64,000 nt of DNA from Liolophura sinensis (Eukaryota > Mollusca > Polyplacophora > Chitonida > Chitonidae): contig NC_088295.1 of assembly GCF_032854445.1 (NCBI RefSeq), positions 65,019,249 through 65,083,248 of the forward strand. Direction: 5' to 3'. Of the stretch, positions 3,901 through 63,596 are shown piece after piece. Under the pieces are notes generated by a model. That model saw nothing but the letters and a program-made list of their open reading frames with translations. It was not told the DNA's origin and ran no database searches. Every line of letters starts with the position of its first letter. Positions within the stretch are counted from its first letter, which is position 1. The position numbers and the translations under genes are program-made.

Positions 3901-6626
3901 GAACATCACTCTGAATAGGTATTGATTTATTATTTGATCGGTGTTTTACGCCCTCCTCAAGAACATCACTCTGAATAGGTACTGATTTATTATTTGATCG
4001 GTGTTTTACGCCCTCCTCAAGAATATCACTCTTAATAGGTATTTATTTATTATTTGATCGGTGTTTTACGTTTTACGTTTTAGAAAACTCATTTATTCAT
4101 GGAATAAATAACCTTAGCTTTGACAAATTTCGCTCTTAATTTATTTACCTACTGAAGTCACAGCTATAAATTTATTTCAAAAGATTCTCTATATACAAAT
4201 ACTTCAAGGAAACTGTAAATATAATTTCTATAACGGAATGGTACTGGATAAAACGACTGAGCCCTCAATCTAAGAGACATGTCATTGTACAAGCACGTAT
4301 GCTTGGGTTTTTACGTCGTCTACGTACTTTTTTAGTCATATGACAACGAGAAATCATCAAGTATGTCCATATATACTGTGTCTTCCTTTGGCTCTACTGA
4401 GTCCATTTCGCCAAAGAGCAGCCGCAAAAGTACCATGCGGAAAACACCAGACATGACACCCTACCCTCTGATCCAGTCACATTATACTAACATCGGGCCA
4501 ACCACTCCTGTTTCTTAGCTCTAACCTCTCAGTGCAAAGCCCCAAGCGACGAGTACCAATTTTAAAGTTTGATTCCAGCAAGGTCTCACGATTTGGAGGC
4601 GGACGATCTAACCGTTAGGCCACCGAAACGGTCTGAGACATGTCTTAGAACCATACTGAAGGCTCGGTGCTTCTATTATGACCATCTTCAAATTAAACAT
4701 AAAAACGTGGAACCTAAATCACTAAAAACTTTTCAAGGGCTAGGATAAAGTTTCTTAGCACCCTAAAGCTTGGGCAAACCAGAAGGTTCTTGTCTTTGTT
4801 TTCTGCAAACACGCACTGGTTGTCAATTATCCAAGCTCTGGCACTATTCTCCTACGTCAAGTTGTACCGTGGCAATCATACTATACCCAAGTTTTCCATT
4901 GAATGTGAGTTTCCATGTTTTCATTGGCAGCACTATTCTCCTACGTCAAGTTGTACCATGGCAATCACACTATACCTAAGTTTTCCATTGAATGTGAGTT
5001 TCCATGTTTTCACTGGCAATCTATTCTCCTACATCAAGTTGTACCATGGCAATCACACTATACCCAAGTTTTCCACTGAATGTGAGTTTCCAAATTTTCA
5101 TTGGCAGCACTATTCTCCTACGTCCAGTTATACCATGGCAATCGCACTATACCTAAGTTTTCCACTGAATGTGAGTTTCCATGTTTTCATAGGCTCCACG
5201 GCTTCCAACTTCAGCCCTCCAGCAGCAAACTCACCAGGATGTGTTCCCTCTAGGTTAGTTTCTGGCAGAGTAGGGAACTCCAACAGGCCAACATCAGGGA
5301 TCTTTCATGTCAACGACAAAAATAAATACATACATAAATAAATAAATAAAATTACAAAAAAATATTGAAAAAATCATTAAATTTTTTATACAATTTCCTG
5401 TGTGGTGTGTTGCAGTTATTCTACTTGGTTCGTTGCCATTAATATATGAATGTAACTTAGGGCATAATAACCCCATCATGGTAACCCCATTGCGATAACC
5501 CCCTCTTGATAACCCCATCATGATAACCCCATCGTGATAACCTTATCCAAAGGACATGGAAGTATATACTCCCAGATTAATGATCAATCACATTATCATG
5601 ATAATGAACTGAGCATGGGAATATAAACTTATCCCACATTAATCTTGATCATACATGTATTCTCACCCAGTGGGACTACAAACTCCCATCTTACTGACTA
5701 CACATGGGACTACATACTCCCATCCCTAGGACTACAAACTTCCATCTCAGTGACAACAAACAAGGACTGCATACTTCCATCTTACTGACTACCCCCTAGG
5801 ACTACAAACTTCCATCTTAGTGACTACCCCCTAGGACTATATTCTCTCCCATCTTAATGACCACACTGTAGGACTACATTCTCCCATCTTAGTGAATACA
5901 CCCAATAACTACATATCCCCATCTTAGTGAATACACCCCAGGACTACATACCCCCATCTTAGTGAACACACCCCAGGACTACATACCCCTATCTTAGTGA
6001 ACACACCCCAGGACTACATACCCCCATCTTAGTGAATACACCCCAGGACTACATACCCCCATCTTAGTGAACACACCCCAGGACTACATACCCCCATCTT
6101 AGTGAACACACCCCAGGACTACATACCCCCATCTTAGTGACTAGATCTAAGGGCTACATACTACCATCTTAGTGAATACACCCCAGGATTACATACTTCC
6201 ATCTTAGTGAATACACCCCAGGGCTACATACCCTCATCTTCGTGACCACACTGTAGGACTACATACCCCCATCTTAGTGACTAGATCCAATGACAACCAA
6301 CCCCCATCTTAGTGACTACACCCAAGTACTACATACTCCCATCTTAGTAACCACACTGTAGGACTACATCCCCCTATCTTAGTGACCACACACAAAGACT
6401 ATACATACTCCCACATTAGCGGCTACACTAAATGACTACAAACTTCCATCACAGTGACTACATTCAAAGACTACATACTCCCATCATAGAGACCACATTA
6501 AATGATTACATACTTCCATCTTAGTGACCACACACAAAGACTATACATACTCCCCCATTAGCGACTACACTAAATGACTACAAACTGCCATCATAGTGAC
6601 TACGCATAAAGACTATACATATATAT

Positions 6627-6685
<59 letters not shown>

Positions 6686-8124
6686 CATACATACATAGTC
6701 TCACCTGACTTTATGTACTCAGTGTGATGATGATTACTAATTACATTAATGGAAATATCATCTCATTTATATTTAAGTGACAATGCACATTGGGAGGGTC
6801 TACCAGCAGCCTGTTGATAGCCGTGGGTTTCCCCCGGGTACAGCCTGGTTTCCTAAAATCAAAATTATTGCAGCCGACATGTAAGTGAAATACTCTACAG
6901 TATGACATAAAACTCTAATCAAATAAATAAATAAATTGACTTTATTCATGTTCATGGATAAAGGGAATTAACTCATGGATAGATCAATATTTATAGCTGT
7001 CTGATTGTGCTTTCAGACAGGTGACCATATAGAAATACATCTATATCTTCATGCCCATGTTGGTTTAACTGGAAATAAATCTCTTGGAGACCAGAGTCAA
7101 GGACATGCATTCTCACAGATCTATCAGTATATGTATCAGCATTACTGGTATGCATAGGTTTAGCCAGGGGGGTGTCTCAATCTCTTTAAGACGCCCTGTT
7201 TTGACAAAATTAACATGGGAGAGATATAATAGGAAAATGGGAGAAAAATGGAAATAAAACCGTCTCATTTCAAACTCTGGACAAATCTTTGCAGGTATGA
7301 AATGTCTTCAAATCTCCTATACATACCCTGATCAATAGGATTGTCTGTACAATATTATTATGTCTGCGTGCTGTAGCCGCCACTAGGTAGGTCCCATTCC
7401 TGTCACCACCATTGAAGTACACAGCATCAACTGCCTTGTTAAAATACAAATGGTAGAGAACTTAAAAGACCTGTGAATTTTGGTTTTTTAATAACCGGTA
7501 TAACAAAATATTGAAATCTAAAATTTTGGAATACTAATAGAGACAATACATTTTTTTTTATTTATAAAAATTGCATTTTACATTTTATTATGGTTGAATT
7601 ACTAAGATCATTATACAGACACCGTGAAAAATGTATATATTTAAGTACAAGGATGTGCTGATATGACCCCTACAGCTGTATGTCTGTCATTTCTGCAAAT
7701 GTTACCATTAAGTGGTCTATATATCTATAGGCAGCAATTTAACACATTCTATAGAGGTGGGCCCTGTACATTTACATCCGCTACTTGTAAACTATATGGC
7801 ATGTACAATAATTCTCCTGCCCAATTTAGTGTACATGCATGTACTAACAAGTGGGTGTTCTGGGGACAGGTCCTGTGGCTTGTCCATATCACCGGGACTT
7901 GATCTGGACCTCATGCCGTAACCGGCGCCATCACCCGACGTCACTTCTGCTTTAGAGGCATTCTGACGCCGACGTAACTGCATCAACAGGCGAAACAAGG
8001 CATACTTGATAGGGTACCAAGTACCGGGAAGAGAGTACACCCCATTAACAGGCCTTGGGTCACCACCTAAAATCCATCTGGCCAGAAGAAATAATGAAAC
8101 AGACGTAGCAATCCAATACAACAT
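913..8124 (-). CDS. Phosphoenolpyruvate synthase/PPDK-like protein, N-terminal seven exons (partial)
   Basis: Seven coding exons join in frame: 7849-8124, 7327-7434, 5153-5301, 3297-3455, 2680-2789, 2215-2326 and 913-1040; the last ends in phase 1 at a GTAGGT donor, so the gene continues off the left edge. The start is the ATG at 8122-8124, followed by a hydrophobic N-terminal segment (about residues 1-18, possible membrane anchor). Recognisable blocks are AVDAVYFNGGDRNGTYLVAA, KYFDFDTD, HQTHYEQFGEITG, GVRDHSYG, KRDWSSFHRYILQ and GYVFQPDGRMDAVSS. From memory these belong to the N-terminal region of long invertebrate proteins annotated as PEP synthase-like, whose ATP-grasp (PPDK_N) and phosphohistidine domains follow; none of those catalytic parts is in the window, so the activity is inferred. 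It is divergent from the tetraspanin gene. Exon 3's donor is embedded in a tandem array (4841-5190). Exon structure is well supported; the product name is less so. Confidence 0.7.
1091..1238 (+). mobile_element. SINE family A, 5'-truncated copy
   Basis: Body and tail only: 'tctccggccgtacgtgggaa', 'ggatggtcgtgggtttcccc', 'ggcgtaaaacaccaat'. The tRNA-like head is missing. Confidence 0.85.
1342..1614 (-). mobile_element. tRNA-derived SINE, family A, near full length
   Basis: On the minus strand this starts with a tRNA-like head (A-box-like 'gtggcctagtggttagcg', B-box-like 'gagttcaagcc'), continues with a body holding 'ggaaaggtctggcagcaacc' and 'accataatgatggccg', and ends in 'caaataaataaatc'. 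Same family as 37013-37276. It lies in the first kilobases, within the intron between exons 6 and 7 of the PPS-like gene by flanking position, or just beside exon 7. Confidence 0.85.
3669..4075 (-). repeat. 60-bp tandem array built from a SINE tail
   Basis: Seven near-identical units of 60 bp (last one truncated) begin at 3669, 3729, 3789, 3849, 3909, 3969 and 4029. Each holds 'tgatttattatttgatcgg' followed by 'tgttttacgcc', the inverted 3' tail of the window's main SINE family. The array lies in intron 3 of the PPS-like gene and appears to be a fragment of a SINE expanded by tandem duplication. Confidence 0.92.
4377..4640 (-). mobile_element. SINE family B (tRNA-derived), minus copy
   Basis: On the minus strand a tRNA-like head reads 'ggtggcctaacggttagatc', then 'gagaccttgctggaatcaaa' (B-box region). 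The body resembles copies at 41294-41512 and 51470-51800, with shared 'tgtcatgtctggtgttttcc' and 'gcactttggcgaaatgg'-like blocks. It lies in intron 3 of the PPS-like gene. Confidence 0.65.
4841..5190 (-). repeat. 89-bp tandem array duplicating an exon end and its splice donor
   Basis: Four units of 88-89 bp. On the minus strand each unit contains about 38 nt matching the end of exon 3 of the PPS-like gene (ending GGAAAACTTRG), a GTATAG donor, and about 50 nt of intron. Exon-intron boundaries of the four copies fall at 5153 (the real one), 5064, 4976 and 4887. Two copies carry a T-A-G exon end and two carry T-G-G. Use of a distal donor would add an in-frame TAA within 9 codons of the real junction. 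Confidence 0.9.
5680..6600. repeat. 35-bp minisatellite
   Basis: Degenerate tandem units of about 35 bp with core 'ggactacatacccccatctt' followed by 'agtgaacacacccca' fill intron 2 of the PPS-like gene. The most regular stretch is about 5935-6130; both ends decay, with units such as 'gactacaaacttccatc'. It is followed directly by an AT microsatellite. Confidence 0.9.
6614..6697. repeat. (AT)n / (ATAC)n microsatellite
   Basis: An uninterrupted run of AT dinucleotides flanked by ATAC tetranucleotides, at the end of the 35-bp minisatellite. Confidence 0.95.
6789..6935 (+). mobile_element. SINE family A, diverged 5'-truncated copy
   Basis: Contains 'gatagccgtgggtttccccc' and the tail 'ctaatcaaataaataaataa', with many substitutions in between. 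Confidence 0.8.
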
Positions 8125-9910
8125 TGTCCTTCAAGAAACAGTGAACAACTAAAATAACAAGCGACAACTATATACATAATCTGGGCAAAGTTCACTTTGA
8201 GCTAAACAGGTTTTTATCGCGATAGGTTTACGAAACTGATGAAAGTTCAAGTTGTCTCCCTTTAAATGATGCCCAACAGCGCTGGCGGGAAATGTCAACC
8301 AAATGACAGCTGAAAAAAGCCAAAATGTTTGACAAACTTCCAGATTTCCCCCTGTCCAGACGTCAGGTTTGTAAAGTTTTGCGAGCTTGTTGTGTTTAGC
8401 GTATGATGATTCAATAGTGAAAACAGTATAATATCTTTTAAGTGTATTATATCAGATTATGTGATAGCTCAGCCTTGTCTTTACGCAGGGTCCAATTTTC
8501 GAGACGGGAATTATTTGGCATGATAAATTGTTGCAATGCTAATGATAATGTTTTGAAATCTCCTAAGTTGACTTTGTTGTAATAAGGCGCAAACAACACA
8601 TTACAAAATTTCTATCCTAATTTTTGTGTTCATGTTCGAGCATTTGAATTGTGATTCAATCGCCCAAGAGACAGCTGAGAGAGTAAACTCTTCGCTCAAT
8701 GTTGGTAGGTAAACAGTTTAGGGCGATGTATTGGTGTCGTAGTAGTGAATGTTACACCATTTCATTGAAGACTGCTTTTCACAATTAATGAACACTTTGT
8801 CAGGCCTATGGCAGACAGTGGGCTGGCAATACCCTAGTCCGAGTACACTGAGTTCAATGTAGAAATATTGAGAAATATTCCACCACAGCAGCCATGAATA
8901 TGGTGTATTCGAATAACAGCGTACTCGAACTAGCAATGCCCTTAGTTGCAGAATGTAACTGTGAAATCAAGCATTGCAGTTGCAAGAATTACAGAGAGAA
9001 ACAGCTCTATACAGTATGTGTCGGATTGACGGTAAGGAACATTTATTGCATATTTGCACTTGCATTAAAACCAATGTAAATGGAGGTCAACAGAGTTATC
9101 TCTGTAAACAACTAACCTGTTTTGAGTTTTGCTGAATCAAAAGCGATCCATGGCAACCACACAATTAAGTTTCAGAAAACAAATACATTTTCAGACATTA
9201 CCACCACTATGGCCCAAGTCTGTCACCATTTCAGTCACTATTTCAGTCACTTGTGAGGACGAACAAGACTGACCTAAATGCTGTAAGCTATGATGTACCT
9301 GTGCCAGTCTAGATCTGATGGGCGACTAAGCTTGCCTAGTGTTAGGGCCCACTGTAAGGATTGCCACAGGGATTATCTCCCATGAGCGACCTATTTTTTT
9401 TTCCTGTGCTCACATCAGTCACATGACTTGTCCCATTCTTCTACTTGTTGGTTAAGAGGTAGAAGTTTTTCAGACACTACCCCCTGATGACAATCCCAGA
9501 GGGGGTAGTGTCTGTAAATGTATATGTCTTGACATGCATTGTTTTTGGCTCAGGGAGAGAGGTTAATTGAAAATGGGGACAACTCGGTTAACATCGATTT
9601 ATGCTAGGAAAGTTTTAATGCGCATGTGATGATGCCGTTAGTTTTTCTTACCGTTGATCCGACACATTTGGAACTGTTTCTCTGCATAATCCTTGCAGCT
9701 TTGTTGCTCGATTTCAAAGTTACATTCTGCATCTAGCAACACCCTTAACTTTACGTCTACACCTGTCCCCAATATTTATATATGAAGGTTGTCTGCTTTT
9801 AGGCTGACTCTACAACTGAAGATTTTATTGGCGAAGTATGATGAGGGGATGAGTTTCCTGGTCAAGGCTGTCATCCACCCGTCCTGTCCTCTTGCACCCA
9901 AGGCTACACA
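8125..9910. other. Divergent intergenic/promoter region
   Basis: About 1.8 kb between the start codons of the PPS-like gene (minus) and the tetraspanin (plus). No convincing coding exon is visible. A short ATG frame at 8326 ending in a TAG after 24 codons has no supporting features. A 15-bp perfect inverted repeat lies at 9471-9514. Untranslated first exons of either gene may be here but cannot be placed. Confidence 0.6.
9471..9514. repeat. 15-bp perfect inverted repeat (hairpin)
   Basis: The arm cagacactaccccct at 9471-9485 is exactly complementary to agggggtagtgtctg at 9500-9514, with a 14-nt loop. It is 397 bp upstream of the tetraspanin start codon. Confidence 0.85.
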
Positions 9911-12900
9911 ATGGCCAGGAATGTGATGGATCTACATGTAATGGAGGTGGACTTTGGCTACAGTCTCTACCAGCCACCTCGGTGTCTCCAGTGTAGTTGC
10001 TGGGTTAAGTACAGCCTCTTTTTCATCAACTTCTTTTCATGGGTATGAAAATTGTTCATTCAGACTTTCTGATTTCCTTAAAATCAACAGCATTTTCCCC
10101 ACTATCTTCATGATTATGGCAGGCAACAAAAAGCACATAAATGTATAGGTTGTCCTCTAGCCTCAAACTAATGTTGCCAAAAGTTTGAATTTGATGTTAT
10201 CTTCATTTTGTATTTTACACCATTTCTTGCTTTGTACATTTATTAAATTTCTTTTCAGTAAGTTTGTTTATGTAGTGGTAAAGTGTTGCTTGGATTTGCT
10301 TTGGTCTGCAGAGAATGGTTTGGAATAAGACAATCCATACAGCGGGAAATTGGCTTAGAACTGAGTGTCTGATGGGCTAACAGTCATTTAACTGTCATTT
10401 CAGGATTGAAAGAGAACTGAAAGAGTTATTGACAAGTCCAAATTTATACCTGATCAGCCATGACAAGGGAAAATGAATGTTCCTTTGAGGTTCTGTCTTG
10501 AACGGGTTTCTAATACAACACTTCTGGATATCAGATGAATGGCATAATGATAACCATGTACTAAGTTTGCATGTTTTGCTCCATAAACATAAACCGATAT
10601 TTACTTCCACTTGTACAGCATTTGTTTCACATTTAATTTCAGCAGTGTACTATTAAAACTGTGATTGGGGTTTTAGGTAGGAGGCAGTTTCATGTTTGCT
10701 GTGGGAGTCTGGGCCAGGCTTAACAGTACCAGTGTGGGAGCTCTGAATGATATAGCGATTGACCCCTCCCTTATGGTGATAGCCGTAGGCTGTATTGTGT
10801 TCATCATCAGTGGTATTGCTTGTATTGGAGCTGTCAGGGAAAATGTCTGTCTCCTCTTAATGGTAAGTTTGTGTTCCGGAATTGGTGATTTAGTTGTACC
10901 ATCTTAGTTCTTGGGAAATTGTTTTGACATATACTGTCTGCATTTTGATTAACACTGACTTTTTTGTTGGACAAAAAATAGTGTAGTTTGGGAAGGAATT
11001 TCATTTTTGGTTGTTTTGACTGATGAAGGAAATAAGAATTTTAGAGATACTAACATTAAGAGAGAAAAAGATATTTATCAAAAGCCCAATAAAACAGTAG
11101 GGCCTACTGGATGTTTGGTTGGGTAGTAAAAAAGCTCAGTGAACAAGTTTTTGAAGATGGCCTGAACCTAACTAAAATACATGCAACTTCAGAAAATATC
11201 CACAATATCAATTTGTGGTTAATAATCACATTGCCTTAACAGAGGCAGAGTACTGAAAGAAATTTCACGTATTTCCATTGTGCTCAGATTTTTTTTAACT
11301 TCAAGAATGCACTTATGTGATGAGTTAAATAAAAAGGAGCATATATTATTGATGAATAAGTCACCTACCTACTTCTTACAGTTTTGCATCGCCCTTGGAA
11401 TTGTGTTTGTACTGGAGGTTGTGGCCGGCATTTTAGCCTTTGCTCTTCTGGGCCACGTTGAGGGTCACATGACCGCCCAGATCACATCCGCCATCGTGCA
11501 GTATGAGGATTGCAACACAATGAAAACTGTTATGGACTCATTACAGGAATGGGTGAGACATTTGTGTTCATTTTCCTTTTTCATCAGTGTTTATCTTCTT
11601 TGTTATGGGCTAAAAGCAGTTTCTTTAAGCTGCTGCAGTTCTGTCTTATCTGTCTGTCGGTTGGTCCGATTATTTTATTATTAATGGAACAGGTAGTGAG
11701 TAATGATTGTGGTTCAGCCAGTATAGTCAGTCAGTCAATCAGTCAATCACTATATGATTAAAACTAAACTGTCCAGTAAACCAATCAATTTTTACATTAG
11801 TCTGTATTTTCCTGCCCAGTACAAGTGCTGTGGGGCAGGCAGTTTCCGTGACTGGCAGCACAATGTCTATTACAACTGCTCCTCCCCGGCCAACACCCGC
11901 TGCGGAGTCCCAGCGTCCTGTTGTCAGCATGCCACGGACCTCAAGTGTGGATTTGAAGTCCAGCGGTATTTGGTGAGAATTGATGTATAATACTGTAGTT
12001 AAAGTAAGTGACCTAAACTTTTGTCCCCAAAAATGCATTTGTAGAGGCTCATAAATGTCACGAGATATTACTTTTGGTGCTGAAACTTACATTTTCGAGT
12101 AGGATATCACCCTACCTTCGAAACAAGTCTGAAAGCGCCTTACTAGGATCGGGAAAACTTTTGGGCAAAATGAACAGTTTAGTCATGGACAAAGTTATGT
12201 CATTTACCGCTCACCTATTTCTCTATGATGCAGTCTACAGTTGTGGTGGGCATAGTTTAATGCCAAGGGATAGACTGTCCATGAATATGGCAGATTATTA
12301 TTGTATTAAAGCTGCTTTAGTAATACACAATTTGCTTGTGTTTTCTCTGCATGACAGTAAAATAGAAGTCACAAAGAATTGGTGGTAGGTTTAACTGAAA
12401 TAATTATATTTTTTATAAGAGTAAAGCACTAAACACCAATAAATAAGAAATGAATACAAATGAAAGAAATTAATAAATGAATAGTCTGATATTTTTAACT
12501 ATTTAGCAATCTGGTATCTGGGAAAAGCACAGGTTTCACACAGTGCTGAATGATTAGGGTCTTCACACACTAAATTAGGCTTACTCAGTTTAAGGAAAAG
12601 AACATTTGTAAATGTGTGTGTGTCAAAAGTTTTTCTGTCTGAAATAAAGACAAGTGCAGTCTGACTTGCTCAGACATAACATAATACAGATTGAATTTCT
12701 TACACTGAAAGAACTACTGCAAGACCAATGAAAATACAGGATTGCGTAACACACAAACTCCAGATTTAGGTGTCTAACCTTCATGCTCTACACACTGAGC
12801 TACCAGACAAGATGGGATGTGAGTGCAGGGAAATATGTAAGATCTTGCTAGGTACATTGATTTTCTGACCAGTCAGTTAATTTCCAAAACAAGTGCAATC

Positions 12901-14878
12901 ATTTCCAGGGAATACATCTGTGAAGATTGAATTTCCAACACTGAAACAACTATCTCATGTCGGACCAGTGAAAATACTGGCTCAAAGAGAGAAAGACAGT
13001 GTTAAAAAATTCAACTAAATAGAAGTCATCACTGAGATAGCAGGGTCAAATACAGGGATAGTTTGATACCCTTCCTGGGTTCCTCACTTACAGGAGACCC
13101 TATAAAAGATGCCCAAATTACAGGATACCCTAAACAAGGCCCAAATTAGAGGAAATAATGTCTGATATTCCTGGTATTCATTTGTACTGACTATAGCATT
13201 TTACAGGTATTTTTGACACTAAAATTTAGTATATATGGCTTGAATTTCTTAATATCTGAAAAATATTTTAGGCTATTTAGTTTTCTAAAAAGGTGCACAA
13301 ATTAGGAAGCTTGTATTTGGGCCTGGGTAGACATTATTAAACTCTATGTGTTAGAGGGTCATTGACACATTTTTCCAGAGGCTTAATCAAATTAAACACA
13401 CCCAAAATAGGTTACAACAGCATCTTGGAAAGGTTGGAAATTTGAATGCTGTATTTACTGGGGAATGCAACCAAATCATAACTAAACGTGTAAAAAGAAA
13501 CAAGTTAATACTTATTTTTTTTTTTTTTTTTTAATAATTTAGGTACTGATTGAGTGCTTAAAAATAGCCACAAGTTGCCTTAGGATGGGCTTCTCCTCGT
13601 AGAACAAAAAAGCAACAAATTTACTGCACCTCAGTTTTCAGTTTTATCACTTTCTAATATACAACTGTAAGAGGCAGTGTATCATATTTTTGTCATTTTC
13701 AGGACTGTAAGTGGCAATATATCATATTTTTGTCATTTTCAAGACTGTAAGTGGCAGTGTATCATATTTTTGTCATTTTCAGGACTGTAGGTGGCAATAT
13801 ATCATATTTTTGTCATTTTCAGGACTGTAAGTGGCAGTGTATCATATTTTTGTCATTTTCAGGACTGTAAGTGGCAATATATCATATTTTTGTCATTTTC
13901 AGGACTGTAAGTGGCAGTATATCATATTTTTGTCATTTTCAGGACTGTAAGTGGCAGTTTATCATATTTTTGTCATTTTCAGGACTGTAAGTGGCAGTGT
14001 ATCATATTTTTGTCATTTTCAGGACTCCTATGCATCAACCGTGGTGTTCACAAACGGGTGTGTTCAAGAGCTTTTGAATGTTTTCAAAAATAATTTACTT
14101 ATCATTGGCTTTATTGCGTTTGGATTTGGATTCATGGAAGTAAGTGAAAGGATTTTTTTGTATTAAAAAAGTATTCAGACTGGTGTATTACTGCAGGGTT
14201 TTACTCGCTCATTTGTCTCTGGCCTCAGCCTGTCAACTTTTCATCAGGGGGTCATTTTTCTAGAGCCCATCTTAGGTTGAACTGCGACTTCAAGGAGATT
14301 TGTCATGTATGCTTGGCCATTTTAATGCTGGTAAAATAGTACGCCGTAGAACACCAATCAGATAAAGAAATAAATCAAGTATGTTTGGAAGGGTGGTTAT
14401 AGCAGTTGTACAACTACATGTAGATAGATGTACTTTAAAGTTCATCATGTGACAGATGCTATACATGTCTGAAAATGACAATTTAAGATTCAGTTTCGAA
14501 ATGATATATAGAAAAGCTTTAGCTGTTATATCAGTCAACAGTATCGAAACAGGTGACAAACTTGAATGCAAAAATGATTTCACACACAAAAGAGACAAAG
14601 TGATACTAAAAGAGGGAAATGTTAAAAAAAAAACAAATTTACAAGGTACATTGATGATGGGATCTCTTCATCAGGTGCCTGACACGTCATTTGCCTAGTA
14701 GCAGCAGCTTAATAAGGTAGAGGGAAACAGTTGATGATTTGTATAGTCGTTGTAAATGTTTGTTATATTTCAGCTGTTTTGCATGATGCTGGCGTATAAC
14801 TTGATCCGTTCAGTCACCTCCGTCCCACGAAGGCCGGTCTACCATTATGACGACAGTAATGATGACACAGATGATTGA
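9911..14878 (+). CDS. TspanC8-type tetraspanin (complete, six exons)
   Basis: Exons 9911-10042, 10677-10862, 11382-11552, 11820-11972, 14023-14139 and 14774-14878 are all phase 0 and give 287 aa. The start is the ATG in 'acaATGGcc' at 9911; in-frame ATGs at 9926 and 9941 are alternatives. TM1 carries the family signature VKYSLFFINFFSW, followed by FMFAVGVWARL; TM2 and TM3 are hydrophobic (FIISGIACIGAV, IALGIVFVLEVVAGIL). The large loop has YKCCG, YNC, TRC, ASCC, LKC and NGC, the eight-cysteine pattern of TspanC8 proteins (TSPAN5/10/14/15/17/33), which in animals bind and traffic the metalloprotease ADAM10. One further Cys (EDC) lies before CCG. TM4 spans exons 5-6 and the cytoplasmic tail is acidic (HYDDSNDDTDD). 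It is convergent with APEX1. The acceptor of exon 5 sits at the end of a nine-copy tandem array. Orthology to one vertebrate TspanC8 member is not resolved. Confidence 0.88.
12027..12195 (+). repeat. Dispersed repeat E, copy 1
   Basis: Shares 'gaggctcataaatgtcacga', 'ggtgctgaaacttacatttt' and 'aaaatgaacagtttagtca' with copies at 19889-20065, 20549-20635 and 60395-60580. No coding potential or terminal repeats are evident; family not recognised. Confidence 0.7.
13657..14022 (+). repeat. 40-bp tandem array duplicating a splice acceptor (with donors)
   Basis: Nine 40-bp periods precede tetraspanin exon 5. Each holds 'atatttttgtcattttcag' + GACT + GTAAGT. Acceptor AGs end at 13702, about 13743, 13782, 13822, 13862, 13902, 13942, 13982 and 14022 (the real one). 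GTAAGT/GTAGGT follows four bases after each of the first eight. Only GACT is shared with the start of exon 5, so the array was seeded at the exon boundary. Confidence 0.95.
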
Positions 14879-31438: not shown

Positions 31439-31444
31439 AATAAA
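31439..31444 (+). terminator. Possible polyadenylation signal of the ASB-type gene
   Basis: AATAAA 312 bp after the stop codon. Plausible by position only. Confidence 0.35.
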
Positions 31445-34375: not shown

Positions 34376-34459
34376 CTTCTTGTTTAAAAAATACATGCAT
34401 CTATCCAAGGTAAAAACACAAGGGAGATAACCGTAACAACATTAAGATTTTGTACACTC

Positions 34460-41512: not shown

Positions 41513-41680
41513 AATTTATGCACATTCTTAATTTAATTTTGGAGACAAAACTACAATAGTTGGTTTGGCAAGTTTCAGGGCTTCACAGAAAGTATAATTT
41601 TATCAGTCAACACAAAATAATGCCTTCAGAGTATGCTTGAATAAACACCTTGCAAACATGTGAAAAGGTTGAAGAATTAC
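41503..41680 (+). repeat. Dispersed repeat D, copy 1
   Basis: Shares 'gaaagagcaactttcagtg', 'ttttggagacaaaactacaa' and 'ataatgccttcagagtatgc' with 53497-53665. It starts where SINE family B ends, so it may be the downstream half of a longer element. Confidence 0.75.
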
Positions 41681-52211: not shown

Positions 52212-53496
52212 GGTGTCAAGAAGAGCTAGGACATCTGGAATATGAGCAACAGAGGTTAAATATAATTACATGTAACCATTACAATATGGCAGGGCTGGTT
52301 CATTGCCTGGTGAATAGTCAGATCTGCTAGCAGATAAAACAACACTGTCATGCAAGCAATTAATTAAACTAGATCGGTATTCACTCCATTTGTGAATGTT
52401 ACTGATGTATCTGCAATGCCAATAACCTGATTAATCCCTGTGATCAACACAACACTAGGAGATGGCATGCTGTAATCACCTAAATCGCGTTCACTTCAGT
52501 GCATGCATGACCATGGCCTTACATATAAAAAATGACAAATTCTAGAGCACATTGTCAATCAGATAAACCATATGTACTGAAATCCAAATGACACAGCACT
52601 AGTTTCATAAAAACACATCTCTGTATGCGCAGACCTGAAGTCGGAACTGGGAGACATGTATCAGGTACTGAGATTGACAGGTCTAGCCACCTATGAAAGC
52701 CATACTCAAACAATTCATTGTTGGGGGTATTATCCAACCCTATCAGAAAAAATAGTGTAGGAGAGGAGGGGACTGTTTTTTTTTTTATTCTGGCTACTGA
52801 ACAATGTAGGAATTTCATATACTAAGACAGCAAAAAAAAAATGATATTCCATTGAAAGCCCCAAAAAACTTTAGAATACCTCCCTTTTCTGGAGAGTTGT
52901 TTAGGTCACAATCAAAAAAACATATTTTTGTACCTTAATACTCTAGTACGTACCTTTATGTTAGATACTAGAGTCAGCATAAAAATTTGGATAAGTAAAA
53001 TGTATTGGTCTGCATGTTGTCAGCTTATTTCAACTGCATATTAATTGGCGTCATGTTTGCTGTCTTCTATGTGACAATCTAGTTTGGCACCATTAATGTA
53101 CGTAAATTTGTTATCATTTACACCCATTTTCACTGTAGTATGACCAAAATTAAATTTTAATGTCAAATCATAAAGAAACATCATGGTCATCAAAGCAAAG
53201 TATTAAATAAGCCTGTGCATGCCATCTCTCTCATACAAGCAGATATCACTCGGGGTTCATTTCATCATGTGGGTGACCTATAAATCAGCATGACTGAGAT
53301 AAACAGCAACAGATATCACATAAAACCTGCTGCAAATTGGTTGCTATTGATTTTATTGAAATATGTAAAACAGAAAGCAACAAGACTGAGATAACAATTT
53401 CACAGCTACGAGCTTTTGAACAGAAAGAATGTCATTTCAGGGCAGATTTCATAAGAAACTGAAACCACTATTATCCTAATTCCTTAACCATTTCAC

Positions 53497-53665
53497 CTTT
53501 GAAAGAGCAACTTTCAGTGGAACTGATGCACGTATTTAATTTGATTTTGGAGACAAAACTACATTGGTTGGATAGGCCAATTTCAGTTAAAGAAAAGTAT
53601 GATTTTACAGTCTACACAGAATAATGCCTTCAAAATTTGCTTGAAGAAACACCTTGAAAAATTCC
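53497..53665 (+). repeat. Dispersed repeat D, copy 2
   Basis: 'ttgaaagagcaactttcagt', 'gattttggagacaaaactac', 'cagaataatgccttcaaaat'; same order and orientation as 41503-41680. Confidence 0.75.
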
Positions 53666-55889
53666 AGGAATAATTGAATTCCTGATCATTAATTCAGTGC
53701 ACTACATATGATAAACATTCCGCAAATGCATACTCGTGTACATCTGTACAAGTAAACTTTGTACAAGTTTTAGGGTCAACATACATGTACTGTTTGTCTA
53801 GACCTTCAAACATGTCAAAGCTACAGCTACTCCCTTGGAAATTGGCCAAAATGTATCTGTAGAAAAAATTTATAGCAAGACAAAAGAGGTGACAGTCCCC
53901 AAGTCACCATTCCAAACCATACTGCTGAATTATGTTACCTACACATGACCTTTATATCACTTCTTGCAAAGTCTTCGTGTATAATTTGCATTAACTAATG
54001 CTACATTATGGTTTTATGACTACACTCAGGCAAAAAACATCCTTCCGTGGCTGTTGGGGGCTTACGCTAACCTGCATATGGTGACATAATGCCGACATAA
54101 ACAGGGAACACTTTAATATGCCCATTTTTTTTATCCTTCCCATGTCATCTTTCACCTTGTTGTCTGCTAATAAAAACTGGAGGCAAGCGAAGTGTCTGGG
54201 CATGCACACTTTTAATGGTTTCTAGTTTTGCAGCTATCCTATTTTTACAGTATGTACGCTGATGCACAAAGAGCCACAGAGAAAAAGTTAACAAAATTGT
54301 GTGGATCCAGTCCAGTTCAAAATGAGGCTACGATGGCACTATGGAGGATTTCTTTGTGGAGAAACTGATTATTGCGAGGGATTTCAAGACTAAATATAGT
54401 GAAACTGCACGGAAGTAAAAAACACTCTGACTCAACAAAACAATACAGATTTACTCTACCTGTTGACAGACTGCTCAGGTACCAGAAAGTTGCATGTATA
54501 TGTGTAAGTGATCTGGCTGTTACAGCCACAGGCCAGAATGCAAAACTATTTCTACTGCAGTCACCTAAGAAAGATGATTTTTGCGCAGTTCTTCAAATAA
54601 AATCAACGGCTCCATACACAATCTTCACTGATTGCTGTATACTGTATTAATGCACTTACCATTAAGAGAAATCTCACCAACACGTTCACATTTTTGCAAT
54701 ACGTCTTTTTCATTGTAAAAATTTTCAAGCTCTTTTTTCACTCCAAACTCTTCTAAACAGCTACTGCTAAAGAGTTCATTTTAGGCAAGGTACCTGAAAA
54801 ATTTTACTGTTTCGGGCATAGACAATATCCTATGACACAAGGTGAATTTATTTCATGTCACATGTTAACTCTGGTGGCTGTGCCACTCAAATCAGAGTTA
54901 CATGTTTGCATGTAAGGTGCCTGCAAACCATTATTACTTGTACTGATGTATAAATCTAACAGGTCAGGGTAATACTTAAGATTTTATGATGGCATATAGT
55001 GTGTAATTTCCATTTTATACAGAATCAATCATACCAGGAATGCATGATGCTGACAAATTCACACTGGCAGAACATTAACTGTTAAATCTGGTATCAGTTT
55101 CATTTTGTAGGGTCTCATAAATTTGTTCGACATGTCAGATGAAGTTAAATATGGTTTGAAATGTTCAGGTTTTTAGGCTTACAAGATTAATTTACCTCAA
55201 ACAACATGACATTTACTTGAATACAAGATGACACGGTAAGAAACTACACCTCTCAAATAGCTTGCATCTCAAATTCATTTGTAACAGGTATCAGAAATGT
55301 TGACATCGGCATCTGAGGTATTCTGCTGCAGTTAGGTACATGTAATCTGCCGTGTTTTACTTTGTTAGGACAATGCATGTTTAATGGTCTGAGGGAAATT
55401 TTCAGTCAGTCAGTCAACTGACAGTCACACTGACAAAGATCTCCGCGTTTTCATTCATTAAAACTCCACCTTCTTTTATCTGAATACAATACGCTTGCAG
55501 TTGGATGCCTACATTTTCGTCAAAAGAATTCGTTAAAACAGATCGTCATTTGATGCTGTGTGCCTTCAAACCTCCTTTTGAAAGGTCAATGGATGCTCCG
55601 ATCTTTTATCTAAATATCGCGAAAACCGGCCACTCAACAATCATGACCCATGTGGCGGAAGGCTTATAAACTTTCTGAAATATTTCAGACGTAAATCAAA
55701 AATACAAAACTTACCATGATGCCAGTAAAGTAGAAACGTAAGTGTCTAATTAATAACACCAAAAGCAGAAAGTTGCAACACACAAAAATCCCTTGACTTT
55801 TCCAAACTTTCCTTTTGTTTTTCCTGCCAAGCAACAAGCAGTAATCCGCAAATTTGACTACGACAATGATGTTTGAGCACAAAAATCGA

Positions 55890-55897
55890 TGACGTCA
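55890..55897. promoter_or_regulatory. CRE/ATF palindrome TGACGTCA upstream of ZMPSTE24
   Basis: A perfect 8-bp TGACGTCA lies 51 bp before the ZMPSTE24 ATG, in a locally CG-containing stretch. Position fits a proximal promoter element or 5' UTR; function is inferred from the consensus only. Confidence 0.45.
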
Positions 55898-55947
55898 GAC
55901 CTTCCGCGAAAGTTACAACACGTTGTTCAAATTGCAAAGGGTGAACT

Positions 55948-58900
55948 ATGGAACTGACAGATGTCGATATCTTCAAAGCTGTTCTTATTTTTATGTGGAT
56001 TGTTTATTTGTGGGAAGAATATTTGTCTTTCCGACAGGTAGATTATGCGCTGAAACATTTCTAGTTTGAATATTGTCCTCCATTGAATCAGTAGGTGTTT
56101 GTTATCCATCGCATTATTCATGCCCTGACATTGTGACTCTGACAAAGCTGGTGGGTAGCAGATACCATAGAAACATGTGTGTTGCCACAGAAGTTACAAT
56201 GGCCCAGACATAGGATTTTTGTTGTTGTTTTTTTGTGTATGTGTGTGGAAACGGGGTACGAGGTCTGCACAAACGCAGGCCTCAGAGAGTGACTCAGTGA
56301 CTAACACAAACAAACATTAGACTGTACATGCAAGCATGTGGCTGTTCATTGTGTCTGGGAAGAACATTCTCCTCCCAGGTTGTGTAGAAGCATAATAAGC
56401 AATACCCTAAAGAATTAGACATTGTATGCTAATGATACAATGTATCATTAGTATATAGCATCTAGTTCATGAGACTAGATAGGCAACATGTAGACTAGCA
56501 CACAAAGTACAAACATCCAGATGGTCTCAAATGGAAAGTGCAAACTTAGACCTCAGATAGAAACATAAAGCTCATAATGTAGGAGCACAAATCTCACAGT
56601 CAGTGTTAAACATTGTTCATGGTCGTCCAGACTTTGATTTCGGATCACCTGGGCTGAGAAGCATACAGTAGCAGGATCGAACGTTCATGTAGTATGAAAA
56701 ACACCAAGGGTGGATACTGGATACTAGAGTTTTGAGAGCTACTAAAACTAGAATGTTTTAAGACGTACAGCTTAAGACGTAAAGCTGAGAGTTAAATGTT
56801 TGAATTGAACGAAGCAAAAATGAATTTTATAACCATTTTAAAGTATGGACACAGCGCCTTCCATGCCTGAATGGGAACCTGTCAAATGCCGGGCAGCATG
56901 ACCTTCACACATGTTATTGACATCAAATGTTCCTTTCCAAGGTCATCATGATATCACATTAAAGACAGTATGACATTACAAAACTCATACATTGTAATGG
57001 TGTGAATTTTACACCCAGACGCCATGACGTGGAAAAAAGAAACATTTGTTTCATGACCTTACAATCTGAGCTTAGCAGCATGATGTCATAATACATTGGT
57101 ATTATTGTCTGACACAGGAAACTTTTGCATTTCTACGTCACACAAAATGAGACAGTGAAATACATATGCAGCTGTGAAGTGTCTAGGTCGATTGCAATGG
57201 CCTAAACTTGCTGTTGATTGGTCTAAAATGCATGATCTTTGCAGAAGGAGTGAAAGAGAATGGCAGCAAAAGGCTTCATGAAGCATGTCATATTTACTTC
57301 ATTTCTTCATTTTTTTAGAAGAATAGACTTTAGCATCTTAATCATGGTGTTTGTTGTGTAATCTGATACAGCTGAACCTTGTTTCGTACCTTGTCAAATC
57401 CCTTGAATGTGCACGGTCGGTGTTAAACCCTTAGACCCCTTGGCCTACCAATTGTAGACTGAAATATTGAGCAATCTGATGTTTGTATACTACTACAGAT
57501 GTCAGCATAACATAATATAACACAAATGCAGACATGTCAGATTAAGCTGACCAGGGTTAATTTCAAGCCCTGTTACTGAGCTTGGAAATTCCAGCAGTCT
57601 GCAAGGTCATGGAATAATACATGTAGTTACATGTATGTATTCTTTCTCCTCTGCAGAGAAAGCTGTACAAGTCAGTGACCAAAGTACCATCCGTTCTAAC
57701 AGACGTGTTGGATCAAGACACCTTTGACAAGGCTAGACTGTACAACCTGGACAAAAACCAGTTCAAATGTTGGTCAGATTTGTATTCCCAGGTGGAAACT
57801 ACGGTGAGTGAATCCTTGGTGCTAGAAGCTAAAAAGCTGTTGTGTTTCAACCTCTGAGCGAAACTTAGCTATGGTGTTTCAGAAACTTCTGATCTGACCT
57901 GGTATTAAATATTTGATAAGCATTACATGTAAATGTTTCAAACACAAACTGTAAACATGATGATAAAGGAACGTCCTTGTTTAGGCTATCACGATAGGAC
58001 CAAAATGATGTTGGTTGCCTGCCAATTATAAACATGATGATACAGGGACTTACCTGTATACGCTATCACGACATGAACAGAATGATGTTGGTTGCCTCCC
58101 AACTATTAACATGATGATGTAGGAACTTCCCTGTTTATGCTATCATGATACGAACAGAATGATGTTGGTCGCCTCTCAACTATAAACATGATGATATAGG
58201 AACTTCCCTGTTTACGCTATCATGATACGAACAGAATGATGTTGGTTGCCTCCCAACTATAAACATGATGATGTAGGAACTTCCCTGTTTACGCTATCAC
58301 AATACGAACAGAATGATGTTGGTTGCCTCCCAACTATAAACATGATGATATAGGAACTTCCCTGTTTACGCTATCACAATACGAACAGAATGATGTTGGT
58401 TGCCTCCCAACTATAAACATGATGATATAGGAACTTCCCTGTTTACGCTATCACAATACGAACAGAATGATGTTGGTTGCCTGCCAACTATAAACATGAT
58501 GATGTAGGAACTTCCCTGTTGGTTGCCTCCCAACTATAAACATAATGATGTAGGAACTTCCCTGTTTACGCTATCACGATAGGACCAGGATGATGTTGGT
58601 TGCCTCCCAACTATAAACATGATGATATAGGAACTTCCCTGTTTACGCTATCACAATACGAACAGAATGATGTTGGTTGCCTGCCAACTATAAACATGAT
58701 GATGTAGGAACTTCCCTGTTGGTTGCCTCCCAACTATAAACATAATGATGTAGGAACTTCCCTGTTTACGCTATCACGATAGGACCAGGATGATGTTGGT
58801 TGCCTACCAACTATAAACATGATGATGTAGGAACTTCCCTGTTTACGCTATCACGATACGAACAGAATGATGTTGGTTGCCTGCCAACTATAAACATGAT

Positions 58901-61900
58901 GATGTAGGAACTTCCCTGTTTACGCTATCACAATACGAACAGAATGATGTTGGTTGCCTCCCAACTATAAACATGATGATGTAGGAACTTCCCTGTCTAC
59001 GCTATCACGATACGAATAGAATGATGTTGGTTGCCTCCCATCTATAAACATGATGATATAGGAACTTCCCTGTTTACGCTATCACAATACGAACAGAATG
59101 ATGTTGGTTGCCTGCCAACTATAAACATGATGATGTAGGAACTTCCCTGTCTACGCTATCACGATATGAACAGAATGATGTTGGTTGCCTCCCAACTATA
59201 AACATGATGATGTAGGAACTTCCCTGTTTACGCTATCATGATACGAACAGAATGATGTTGGTTGCCTCCCAACTATAAACATGATGATATAGGAACTTCC
59301 CTGTTTACGCTATCACGATATGAACAGAATGATGTTGGTTGCCTCCCAACTATAAACATGATGATGTAGGAACTTCCCTGTTTACGCTATCACGATATGA
59401 ACAGAATGATGTTGGTTGCCTCCCAACTATTAACAGGATGATGTAGGAACTTCCCTGTTTACGCTATCACGATATGAACAGAATGATGTTGGTTGCCTCC
59501 CAACTATAAACATGATGATATAGGAACTTCCCTGTTTACGCTATCACGATAGGACCAAGATGATGTTGGTTGCCTCCCAACTATAAACATGATGATGTAG
59601 GAACTTCCCTGTCTACGCTATCACGATATGAACAGAATGATGTTGGTTGCCTCCCAACTATAAACACGATGATGTATGAACTTCCCTGTTTACGCTATCA
59701 CGATATGAACAGAATGATGGTGGTCGCCTCCAACTTTAAAACTGAAATGTAAACACTTTTAATGTTGAGTATGGGTTTCGTGTTAACTATCCCGCATGAC
59801 ACCGTTTGTATTTTGATTGATTATGCAGTATATTCCAAGAGCCTTGTCATATAGGATCTAGTATTATTTGTTGCTTTATGATTATTGTCTTCATTGTTTT
59901 CTACATTTATATCAGGCTATCCTGTTACTTGGTGGATTACCATATCTTTGGAACTTGGCCGGGAAACTCACTGGGTATTTTAAATATGGACCAGAATATG
60001 AGGTAAATGTTTTAAATATTAATTCAGAAGTCTAGAGTTTCAACATCTGTAAGTAAGATGTTCAGCTGTATCTTACCATGGGAATGTCATAATTTTCTCC
60101 CTTGTTTCAGTTCATTGTCCAGTCAATTTGATTCTCAACGAGGTGTAACTTGTGGATGGTTGTAGGTTTCCCCTACCCTGGTTTCCTCCCGCCATGATGC
60201 AGGATAGGGTCATATGCATGAAATGTTTTGGAGTATTGTGTAGAACACCAATCAAATAAATGAATAAATCAACTAGGTGCAGCGTACCCAAATACCTTCA
60301 ATGTATATTCTCTGGTATTGGACAATTTTCACTAGTCGTTAAACCACAATTAAATATACGAACGTACCGTAAATGACCTAAGAATTTGAACAAGATAAAG
60401 CATTTTTGGAGGCAAATAAATGTCATGAAATATTACCTCTGGTGCTAAAATTTACATTTTCCCAGTAGTATATCCTGATATCTTCCAAACACCTCTCAAA
60501 GCACTTTTGTAAAATCAACAGAACACCAAGAAAAATGAACAACTTAGTCACGGGTGAAATTTTAGGTTTCAGTAGCCGGATTAGATGTGCATATATCTGC
60601 TGTTAGACCTAAGTTCTACATTTACTGAAAATTGGCAAAAATAATACAAGATGGATAATGTGTGTGCAAATCATTCTGTTGGCTTTAAGTTATCATCTGT
60701 CAAAGCCTGTCTTCCATCAGCTTGAGTTAGTGACTTGTAGTAAAAAAATCATTCAACATTTACTGAAAATTACATGTATAATGATACAGGATGAAAATTA
60801 TTCAAGGTCTCACATCCTGTACTGTAGTTTGTCATGTGTAACAACCTGTTAAGAGTTATAACCAGCTGTACTGTTGAGTATTTTTTGTCTTCACAGTACT
60901 GAGTTTTTCTCTACCATTTGACTGTTTAACTTACTTCCTATAAATGCAGTGCACTAAGCTGGGGAGTAAGCATATATGCAAATATCAACTGCAATAAGCT
61001 TCATGTAAAATGGTCAGGTGGTGTTATTTGGTAATGTGGTGTCTTTTTTTTCCATGTTTATTTTTTAGATTTTGCAGTCTGTGTCCTTCCTATTCCTGGC
61101 TTCTATCTACACCACCATCAGCAGTCTCCCGTGGAGCCTCTATAGCACGTTTGTTGTTGAGGAGAAGCATGGATTCAACAAGCAGGTAAAGACAGTGAAT
61201 CTGATCATCTCATGTTTACTTACATACAAAATGATTTTTTGGAAACCGAAAATAACCTGGAGAGCATGGTAAAGTCTTTCAAAACCTTAATGACGATAAG
61301 CCTCCGGAGCATAAAAAATACAAATGTCCGATCCTAATGGCAAGTTCTTCCATTGACTACATGTATCTTGCCAAGTAGTCAGCCATCTATAAATGCCAAT
61401 CTTCAGTGTCATGTTTGTTGGTTAACTCTGTTAGAATAAACAAACCTGAGGTTCAGTATCCTTGCCTCATCTAAATTAATGTTAACCATGTGTGGGACTA
61501 TCAGGACTTAGCCAGCGACCCCTCCACCCATTTTTTGGACGGGAAGTCCCCAGCAGCAGACAAGAAAATTATGAAAATGAGTTAAAGACGGGTAGCTAGA
61601 AACTCTCAGACTGAACCCACAGGGATGTGTACTGTAGTGTCGTTTTCATTTTTTCAGACTCTTCCATTCTTCTTCAAAGATCTGGTTAAGAAATATTTTG
61701 TGATGCAAGCCTTTGCCCTGCCCCTGACCGCGGGACTGATCTACATCATCAAAATTGGGGGTGATTACTTCTTCATATACACCTGGGTGTTCACTTTTGT
61801 TGTGTCTTTGGTAAGTTTTCTTGTCAAAACAGGAAGTGCAAAAAGTTTGCAGGAAACCATTTACCTTTTACCAGCATACATGCAGCCCTCTTTAGCTATG

Positions 61901-63596
61901 TTCACGCCATGCCCGTAAATGGGTCCGGAGTCTGAACCAAATATTGTACGAATGATGTGGGAAATAAAGTGCTAAAGCAGAACAGACTGATTTCCTGCGG
62001 CTGCCCTTTAATGAATTCAAACAGATAGCTCGCAGACTCATTTTGTCGGTTTGGGAAAGAAAATCGAGATGGATTTTGACTTTCGACCAATCATCATCAA
62101 CAGTGTTGACTTACATGATAATTGCACTCGAGACATTAGCATCAGGCAACGAATGAGCTGAACTGCTGATTACTGAAACTGCTGTGTGACCTGTATGAAA
62201 ACGGGGACATGTACAAAAAAATGCTCAGCATGTGAAATTTGACAGCGGTAACTTGATTTTTGGTGGGCGAGCATACTTTGAGCTGGTATCGTAAACTGGC
62301 TACCTTATGATATTTAAGAGATAAAAGCCATATGGTGCATTTCACATTGGAAAAAACAGAAAGAAATAAATGCAGTAAATGTAATGCTGAATTATGAATT
62401 CCATGATCACACGCCTTGCTAATTATTTGTCTTTATCTGGATGTGATGCGTTACTGATCAGTGCTTCATGCACACAATATATGCAGGCCTACGTATGCAT
62501 GTAATCCATTCCATGCCCGAAATTTGATTGTGTGGATTCATCCTACCGAAAACATTATCATCCCCGAAAATTGATTCAAACTCTGGACTGTAGCTTTAAT
62601 TAGGATCCTCTCCGGCCGTACGTGGGAAGGTCTGCCAACAACCTGCGGATGGTCGTGTGTTTCCCCCGGGCTCTGCCCGGTTTTCACCTACCATAATGCT
62701 GGTCGCCGTCGTATAAGTGAAATATTCTTGAGTACAGCGTTAAACAGCAATCAAATAAATAAATAAATTTAATTAGGAAAATTTGCCAAAGCATGTAAAA
62801 TGCTGTTATGATCGTGCCTTTTTATTGGCAATCATTTTACTTGTAATAAACTACTAATTATGATGGAAGTTGAATAGTGATTGACAGCAACACAGCCCAG
62901 AAACACAGCCCAGCAACACAAACCACCATCCTGAAAGTGAACATTTTTTGATTATGGAATTAAGCAGTATCAAGCAATAAATAAAACAAATGCCCTGGAG
63001 GGAATTACTACAAACAGTTCTTGGATTGTGACTACGTTAGGGTTTGATGTGAAAATAATACATATTTTAGCAGTGCGATGTACTGTAAATATATTTATTT
63101 GCCTGAATGTTTTGAGTAAATTCATGTTTTGCTTGTATGAATTTCAGTGTTCACAGTTTTACAGGAATCAAGCGCTCACCTTAATTACGATATATTCTTT
63201 ACTTTTAGCTTATTGTCACCATCTATGCCGATTATATTGCTCCTTTCAGCTTATTGTCACCATCTATGTCGATTATATTGTTCCTTTCAGCTTATTGTCA
63301 CCATCTATGCCGATTATATTGCTCCTTTCAGCTTATTGTCACCATCTATGCCGATTATATTGTTCCTTTCAGCTTATTGTCACCATCTATGTCGATTATA
63401 TTGTTCCTTTCAGCTTATTGTCACCATCTATGTCGATTATATTGTTCCTTTCAGCTTATTGTCACCATCTATGCCGATTATATTGCTCCTTTGTTTGACC
63501 GGTTTACACCTCTGCCTGATGGCGAACTCCGCACAGAGATAGAAAAAATGGCTGCCAGCATTGATTTTCCACTCAAAAAGCTCTATGTTGTAGAAG
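55948..63596 (+). CDS. ZMPSTE24: CAAX prenyl protease 1 (ZMPSTE24/STE24), N-terminal six exons (partial)
   Basis: Exons 55948-56037, 57657-57803, 59916-60002, 61069-61185, 61658-61810 and 63455-63596 join in frame (216 codons plus one base); the gene continues past the right edge. ZMPSTE24 is the seven-TM zinc metalloprotease of ER/inner nuclear membrane that removes the AAX tripeptide of prenylated proteins and processes prelamin A. Matches to the human protein run along the whole length: [94 protein letters not shown] and [14 protein letters not shown]. The HExxH zinc site is encoded beyond the window. Exon 6 has seven consecutive tandem acceptors; the 3'-most (exon start 63455) gives the family-like protein without insertion and is the one used here. 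Intron 2 carries a 77-bp minisatellite. A CRE lies 51 bp upstream. Confidence 0.94.
57960..59735. repeat. 77-bp minisatellite in ZMPSTE24 intron 2
   Basis: About 23 tandem units of 77 bp; core blocks 'gatgttggttgcctcccaac', 'tataaacatgatgatgtagg' and 'aacttccctgtttacgctat'. Two units lack about 30 bp (near 58519 and 58720) and are each followed by the same 'taggaccaggatgatg' variant, showing that a block of about 200 bp was itself duplicated. Confidence 0.95.
60130..60272 (+). mobile_element. SINE family A, diverged copy
   Basis: 'tggatggttgtaggtttccc', 'ctcccgccatgatgcaggat' and tail 'gaacaccaatcaaataaatg'. In ZMPSTE24 intron 3. Confidence 0.8.
60395..60580 (+). repeat. Dispersed repeat E, copy 4
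   Basis: 'ggaggcaaataaatgtcatg', 'ctggtgctaaaatttacatt' and 'gaacaacttagtcacgggtg'; longest copy of the family in the window. In ZMPSTE24 intron 3. Confidence 0.7.
62607..62770 (+). mobile_element. SINE family A, 5'-truncated, well-preserved copy
   Basis: 'ctctccggccgtacgtggga', 'gggctctgcccggttttcac', tail 'caatcaaataaataaataaa'. In ZMPSTE24 intron 5. Confidence 0.9.
63203..63495 (+). repeat. 41-bp tandem array duplicating the acceptor and start of ZMPSTE24 exon 6
   Basis: Seven units starting at 63209, 63250, 63291, 63332, 63373, 63414 and 63455. Each is the first ~38 nt of exon 6 (CTTATTGTCACCATCTATGC and following) ending in CCTTTCAG, a new acceptor, where the real exon continues CCTTTGTTTGAC. 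Units differ only at a few sites (atgCcg/atgTcg, gCtcc/gTtcc). The first unit is preceded by a separate acceptor, 'ttctttacttttag'. Six extra units equal 246 bp, a multiple of three. Confidence 0.97.

What the first reader, a model, noticed from the sequence alone, without database searches (positions are those of the whole stretch)
4841..63496. Three unrelated genes carry tandem arrays grown exactly across a splice junction
Seen directly: in the PPS-like gene (4841-5190, donor x4, 89 bp), the tetraspanin (13657-14022, acceptor x9, 40 bp) and ZMPSTE24 (63203-63495, acceptor x7, 41 bp), the repeated unit includes part of a coding exon edge plus its splice site. Ordinary minisatellites in the same window (35, 60 and 77 bp) do not touch exons. 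Three such cases within 64 kb suggest a recurrent process that duplicates DNA at exon-intron boundaries in this lineage, or tolerance/selection for multiplied splice sites. I do not know of this as a described general phenomenon, though single tandem-acceptor cases are known. An assembly artefact is a less likely but real alternative.
Basis: partly seen in the sequence, partly recalled or inferred. Interest (0 to 1): 0.88.

Follow-up and report, generated by a model that had tools for sequence, protein, structure and literature searches.

The report
Tandem repeats straddling chiton splice sites
In this chiton genome short DNA repeats have grown across the edges of exons in about one exon edge in twenty, multiplying splice sites; this kind of repeat ("mirage") was known from lancelets, and here it is common and hits 5' splice sites more often than uniform seeding predicts.

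Summary
All three arrays exist at the stated places, and each spans a splice junction supported by homology (ZMPSTE24 by solved human structures, tetraspanin by Pfam, the PPS-like exon by an array-free paralogue). The genome is the chiton Liolophura japonica. The phenomenon is not new: minisatellites spanning exon-intron boundaries are described in lancelet genes as "mirages", where they leave splicing intact. What is new is the lineage and the scale. In an independent sample of 112 exons from four protein families, arrays span 10 of 224 exon edges (4.5%), so three in 64 kb is typical here. Exon edges are covered by arrays less often than introns, but that comparison is unfair, because array growth inflates introns; counted per founding unit, spanning arrays are 3-5 times commoner than uniform seeding predicts, mainly at 5' splice sites. 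A genome-wide pattern test agrees: tandem 5' splice motifs outnumber the same motif reversed 2332 to 660. Most likely each array began as a duplication across the junction and grew by slippage or unequal exchange; it is tolerated because the exon-proximal site still splices while the other copies leave with the intron. The splicing step is inferred, since no RNA was available. ZMPSTE24 is ambiguous: its array is mostly exonic and stop-free.

The parts
   Evidence: translation ...IPDVGLLEFPTLPETNLEGTHPGEFAAGGLKLEAVEPMKTWKLTFSGKLR; paralogue on C9 48% identical over all 50 residues with the same donor position; no Pfam family matched
4841..5194 (-). array A1, 89 bp x4: 40 nt exon end + donor + 49 nt intron; donors at 5152 (exon-proximal, presumed used), 5063, 4975, 4886
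   Evidence: TRF; copies aligned; the exon-distal copies carry missense changes (T>I, M>V, S>N, R>G) and reading through donor 1 meets a stop
13664..14026 (+). array A2, 40 bp x9: 36 nt of intron 3' end (GTAAGT...TTTTCAG) + 4 nt exon (GACT); nine acceptors, the last at 14022/14023 presumed used
   Evidence: TRF; copies; reading in from earlier acceptors meets stops
14023..14139 (+). tetraspanin exon (DSYASTVVFTNGCVQELLNVFKNNLLIIGFIAFGFGFME)
   Evidence: PF00335, E = 5.6e-38 with the upstream exons
63202..63492 (+). array A3, 41 bp x7: 34 nt ZMPSTE24 exon start + CTTTCAG; acceptors before 63209, 63250, 63291, 63332, 63373, 63414, 63455
   Evidence: TRF. No stop in any of the three frames; acceptors before 63209, 63332 and 63455 keep the reading frame
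63455..63596 (+). ZMPSTE24 exon as read from the last acceptor ([17 protein letters not shown]...VVEG)
   Evidence: joins upstream exon 61658-61810 without gap against human CAAX prenyl protease 1 homolog, E = 6.8e-41

Best explanation
The three arrays are 'mirages': minisatellites founded by a tandem duplication of a short segment that straddles a splice junction, then grown by slippage or unequal exchange. They persist because the splice site next to the exon body stays intact and (inferred) remains the one used, while the extra sites lie in the intron and are removed with it, so the mRNA is unchanged. In this chiton they occur at about 4-5% of sampled exon edges. Seeding is not uniform: arrays are founded on or beside 5' splice sites several times more often than at an arbitrary intron position; why is unknown. 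Shown: arrays, junctions, prevalence in a sample, excess over uniform seeding. Inferred: which site is spliced, the growth mechanism, the cause of the 5' splice-site bias.
For: Arrays and junctions. Extra copies carry missense changes while the exon-adjacent copy keeps the conserved residues (ZMPSTE24 copies 2, 4, 5, 6 have A>V at one or both of two positions, the last copy has neither; A1 distal copies have T>I, M>V, S>N, R>G). In A1 and A2 use of a distal site meets a stop codon. Survey in tetraspanin, ABC transporter, AMP-binding and myosin exons: donor arrays L020, L024, L043, L048, L081, L094, L119 and, more diverged, L005 and L100; acceptor arrays L019, L076, L107. Ten of these pass the TRF criterion, out of 224 edges. 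Per founding unit 2.0-2.9 were expected; donors 7 against 1.0-1.5, P 8e-5 to 8e-4. Motif MAGGTRAGT in tandem at 30-60 bp: 2332 genome-wide against 660 for the reversed motif; distinct arrays in the first 5.47 Mb of C1 15 against 3; single motifs outside arrays 17 against 16. One of these donor arrays sits on an Fe-hydrogenase-like (CIAO3/NARFL) exon, PF02906 E = 3.1e-13. Lancelet mirages do not disturb splicing (RT-PCR results reported in PMC3087553; PMC3902484).
Against: No transcript was examined, so the claim that the exon-proximal site is used is untested; in A3 the native intron end lies beside the first acceptor, not the last. The sample is 112 exons from four families, not a random draw, and match ends were taken as exon edges where no clear splice site was called. 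Raw coverage of edges by arrays is below expectation under rotation (5 against 12.2). The excess rests on a collapsed-coordinate null with assumptions about array-free space, chosen after the coverage test had been seen. Two of three pattern-found donor arrays whose start could be read do not abut a recognisable coding exon (L127, L128).
Confidence: 0.78

Rival explanations
1. Ordinary background: the genome is rich in minisatellites (10-20% of exon flanks) and some fall on exon edges by chance; nothing targets the junction.
For: Array coverage is about 10-20% of flanks and only 1.3% (acceptor side) and 5% (donor side) at the edge, rising with distance into the intron; random rotation predicts 12.2 spanned edges, 5 observed.
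Against: Coverage of introns is inflated by array growth. With each array reduced to one unit, 2.0-2.9 spanned edges are expected and 10 seen. Tandem 5' splice motifs are 3.5 times commoner than the reversed motif although single motifs are equally common outside arrays in the loci. Exon-facing array ends within 60 nt of donors are about four times denser than deeper in introns.
Confidence: 0.25
2. Functional use: the multiplied sites are used as alternative splice sites and selection keeps them, for protein diversity or to strengthen splicing.
For: ZMPSTE24 A3 is stop-free in all frames and three of its seven acceptors keep the frame, giving 0, 41 or 82 extra residues; L024 has a 33-bp in-frame unit with a long open frame. 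Tandem dual-specific splice sites in human UBC are used stochastically (PMC10809524). Human boundary repeats can alter splicing (PMC2812944).
Against: Most units are not multiples of three (89, 40, 41, 91, 50, 32, 32, 104 bp); stops follow distal sites in A1 and A2; exon-distal copies carry missense changes; insertions in ZMPSTE24 would interrupt a membrane-segment stretch conserved with human.
Confidence: 0.12
3. Assembly artefact: copy number was inflated by misassembly.
For: The reads were not examined here; one lancelet mirage was itself misassembled in the draft genome (PMC3087553).
Against: HiFi reads of 8.3 kb mean length at 14x span arrays under 400 bp; copies differ from one another; many independent loci show the same anatomy.
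Confidence: 0.03

Closest known systems
Lancelet 'mirages' (Adh3, globins BflGb6/BflGb9, TnC, PGBD5; PMC3087553, PMC3902484)
   Same: minisatellite-like tandem duplication of an exon-intron boundary, at 5' or 3' boundaries, copies with AG/GT signals, several units, units of 10-160 bp, found in several genes
   Different: here a mollusc; about 4-5% of sampled exon edges; a measured bias to 5' splice sites; normal splicing and copy-number polymorphism were tested in lancelet but not here
Internal tandem repeats at exon-intron boundaries of human duplicated genes (PMC2812944)
   Same: minisatellites of about 30-bp units and several copies placed at exon-intron boundaries
   Different: the human cases were found through copy-number differences between recent paralogues and often change the gene structure; here the surrounding exon structure looks ancestral
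Intron gain by tandem duplication of AGGT-bearing segments (Rogers 1989; Zhuo 2007; Gao and Lynch 2009, cited in PMC3087553)
   Same: tandem duplication of sequence carrying splice signals
   Different: no new intron is shown here; the junctions in the three window genes are supported by homologues and the repeats sit beside them
Tandem dual-specific splice sites of polyubiquitin UBC (PMC10809524)
   Same: tandem units each delimited by AG/GT-like signals
   Different: UBC units are whole coding domains and are spliced stochastically; here units are 32-104 bp and usually out of frame

Membership tests
mirage (lancelet junction-spanning minisatellite) | tandem repeat whose unit contains both exon-edge and adjoining intron sequence | tested here: met
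   A1 40+49 nt, A2 4+36 nt, A3 34+7 nt
mirage (lancelet junction-spanning minisatellite) | at a genuine, homologous splice junction | tested here: met
   ZMPSTE24 against PDB 2ypt, tetraspanin PF00335, PPS-like against paralogue
mirage (lancelet junction-spanning minisatellite) | occurs in several unrelated genes and at both 5' and 3' boundaries | tested here: met
   three window genes plus 12 survey edges and a CIAO3-like gene
mirage (lancelet junction-spanning minisatellite) | regular splicing is not disturbed | not testable with these tools
mirage (lancelet junction-spanning minisatellite) | allelic or somatic copy-number instability | not testable with these tools
   haplotypic duplications were purged from the assembly; no second haplotype of A2 or A3 was found
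intron gain by tandem duplication | a new intron bounded by duplicated AGGT copies and absent from relatives | not tested
   no related mollusc genome was available; the PPS-like junction is shared with a paralogue that has no array

The most novel reading that the evidence does not exclude
A duplication process acts preferentially at 5' splice sites in this lineage (for instance linked to transcription or to the 5' splice sequence itself), founding a very large number of junction-spanning minisatellites genome-wide and so supplying raw material for new splice sites, exon extensions and introns.
Probability: 0.4. Interest if true: 0.75.

Novelty: new member of a known kind. Interest (0 to 1): 0.55.

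Why it matters
In the papers found here, junction-spanning minisatellites were a lancelet curiosity known from a handful of genes. Finding them at several percent of sampled exon edges in a chiton, and founded at 5' splice sites more often than uniform seeding allows, makes two open questions directly testable in one genome with existing long reads and RNA-seq: whether splice junctions are mutational hot spots for tandem duplication, and whether such arrays give rise to new introns and alternative splice sites. It also warns that gene predictors and splice-aware mappers face many near-identical sites at these junctions.

Tried and rejected
1) Locus orientation: minus-strand loci came unrotated, so the first edge profile had donors and acceptors mixed; redone. 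2) Raw coverage and rotation tests suggested depletion only; kept as a fact, but rejected as the test of seeding because array growth inflates intron length; replaced by the one-unit-per-array null and the pattern test with reversed motif. 3) A related array elsewhere (L002, alternative-oxidase-like gene) matched the A2 unit at 65%; taken as shared 3'-intron composition, not homology, because the shared stretches are mainly AT-rich and pyrimidine-rich; not tested further. 4) A coding-potential scan to count exons in the window was too weak (9 strong exons against 4 in a reversed control at the same threshold), so the number of window exon edges (about 60) is only an estimate and its P-values are not relied on. 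7) The original lancelet Adh paper and the two PNAS papers on introns from tandem arrays were not held.

Full report
Source. The window lies at C1:65019249-65083248 of a 609-Mb genome with 632 contigs. Contig 1 is 96,433,062 bases, which is exactly the longest scaffold of the Liolophura japonica assembly (609.5 Mb, 632 scaffolds, PacBio HiFi, mean read 8.3 kb, haplotypic duplications purged; PMC11068029). The host is therefore a chiton, a mollusc.

Observation. All three arrays are present as described and their copies were laid out. A1 (89 bp x4, minus strand) repeats 40 nt of exon end, the donor and 49 nt of intron; the same exon end and donor position occur in a paralogue on C9 that has no array. 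A2 (40 bp x9) repeats 36 nt of intron end and 4 nt of a tetraspanin exon (PF00335); nearly every unit also carries GTAAGT four bases after its AG, so it looks like a string of 36-nt mini-introns. A3 (41 bp x7) repeats 34 nt of a ZMPSTE24 exon (human structures, E = 6.8e-41) with only 7 nt CTTTCAG, so it is mainly exonic.

What splicing must do. In A1, reading past the first donor meets a stop, and in A2 reading in from earlier acceptors meets a stop, so the exon-proximal site is the only one that gives the conserved protein. The other copies carry missense changes where the exon-proximal copy keeps the conserved residues. A3 is different: no frame has a stop, and the acceptors before 63209, 63332 and 63455 all keep the frame, so proteins with 82, 41 or 0 extra residues are possible. 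The last acceptor reproduces the human-like protein and is favoured, but the native intron end sits beside the first acceptor. Only RNA can decide.

How common. Pfam searches of the own genome gave 78 exon loci with 1.5-kb flanks and 40 myosin exons with 170-nt flanks. After dropping six near-identical single-exon copies this is 112 exons, 224 edges. Junction-spanning arrays were found at donors of L020, L024, L043, L048, L081, L094 and L119, in a more diverged form at L005 and L100, and at acceptors of L019, L076 and L107. Ten of these pass a uniform TRF criterion (4.5% of edges). Three in the window, with perhaps 60 edges (an estimate; could not count them), is thus typical of this genome.

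Is the junction special? Two views disagree and both are reported. By coverage, exon edges are less often inside arrays (1.3% at acceptors, 5% at donors) than flanking DNA (10-20%), and rotation of arrays predicts 12.2 spanned edges against 5 seen among 83 edges with a called splice site. But a junction exists once per intron while arrays multiply intron length, so this null is too high. With each array reduced to one founding unit, 2.0-2.9 spanned edges are expected and 10 were seen (P 4e-5 to 1e-3); donors 7 against 1.0-1.5, acceptors 3 against 1.0-1.5, the latter not significant. This second null was set up after the first result was known. Exon-facing array ends are about four times denser within 60 nt of donors than deeper in introns. 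An independent genome-wide test used the motif MAGGTRAGT repeated at 30-60 bp: 2332 matches against 660 for the same motif read backwards; in the first 5.47 Mb of C1 these are 15 distinct arrays against 3 (binomial P 0.004), while single motifs outside arrays are equally frequent in the sampled loci (17 and 16). One of these arrays sits on a CIAO3/NARFL-like exon (PF02906, E = 3.1e-13) and repeats its last codons with the donor; two others whose start could be read have no recognisable coding exon beside them. A bias towards 5' splice sites is therefore likely but rests on a small sample and one control motif.

Comparison. Tandem repeats spanning exon-intron boundaries are described in lancelet Adh3, globin, TnC and PGBD5 genes and called mirages; there they do not disturb splicing, and copy number varies in Adh3 and globin (PMC3087553; PMC3902484). 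Boundary minisatellites are also described in human duplicated genes (PMC2812944). The window arrays meet the structural definition; normal splicing and instability could not be tested. The literature searches found no mollusc report, within a library that lacks most subscription papers.

Conclusion. The new content is the lineage, the prevalence and the evidence for preferential founding at 5' splice sites, whose cause is open.

Noticed in passing
window 3668-4070: The 60-bp array appears to be built from the 3' tail of a dispersed SINE-like element (compare ...cgttaaacagcaatcaaataaataaat near 62740-62770), i.e. a minisatellite born from a transposon tail; judged by eye only.
   Followed up: no
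L002 (C1:77836109-77839440), 1367-1907: An alternative-oxidase-like gene (by eye: RICFLETVAGVPGM) has about 13 copies of a 40-bp unit ending just before an exon acceptor; the unit contains TATTTTAG, but the array stops short of the exon.
   Followed up: partly
C1:4178060-4179799, C1:2202175-2202723, C1:5265757-5267898: Arrays whose unit both begins with GTRAGT and ends with CAG, so every unit boundary reads AG|GTRAGT, like strings of dual-specific splice sites; the flank read for the second of these showed no coding exon, and for the third the array simply continued.
   Followed up: partly
L024 (C7:11291252), 1685-2213: A tetraspanin donor array with an in-frame 33-bp unit x16 and a long open frame; alternative donors would add 11 residues per copy.
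   Followed up: no
C1, first 5.5 Mb: Listed donor-motif arrays are several times denser there than the genome average, as if minisatellites gather near the chromosome end.
   Followed up: no
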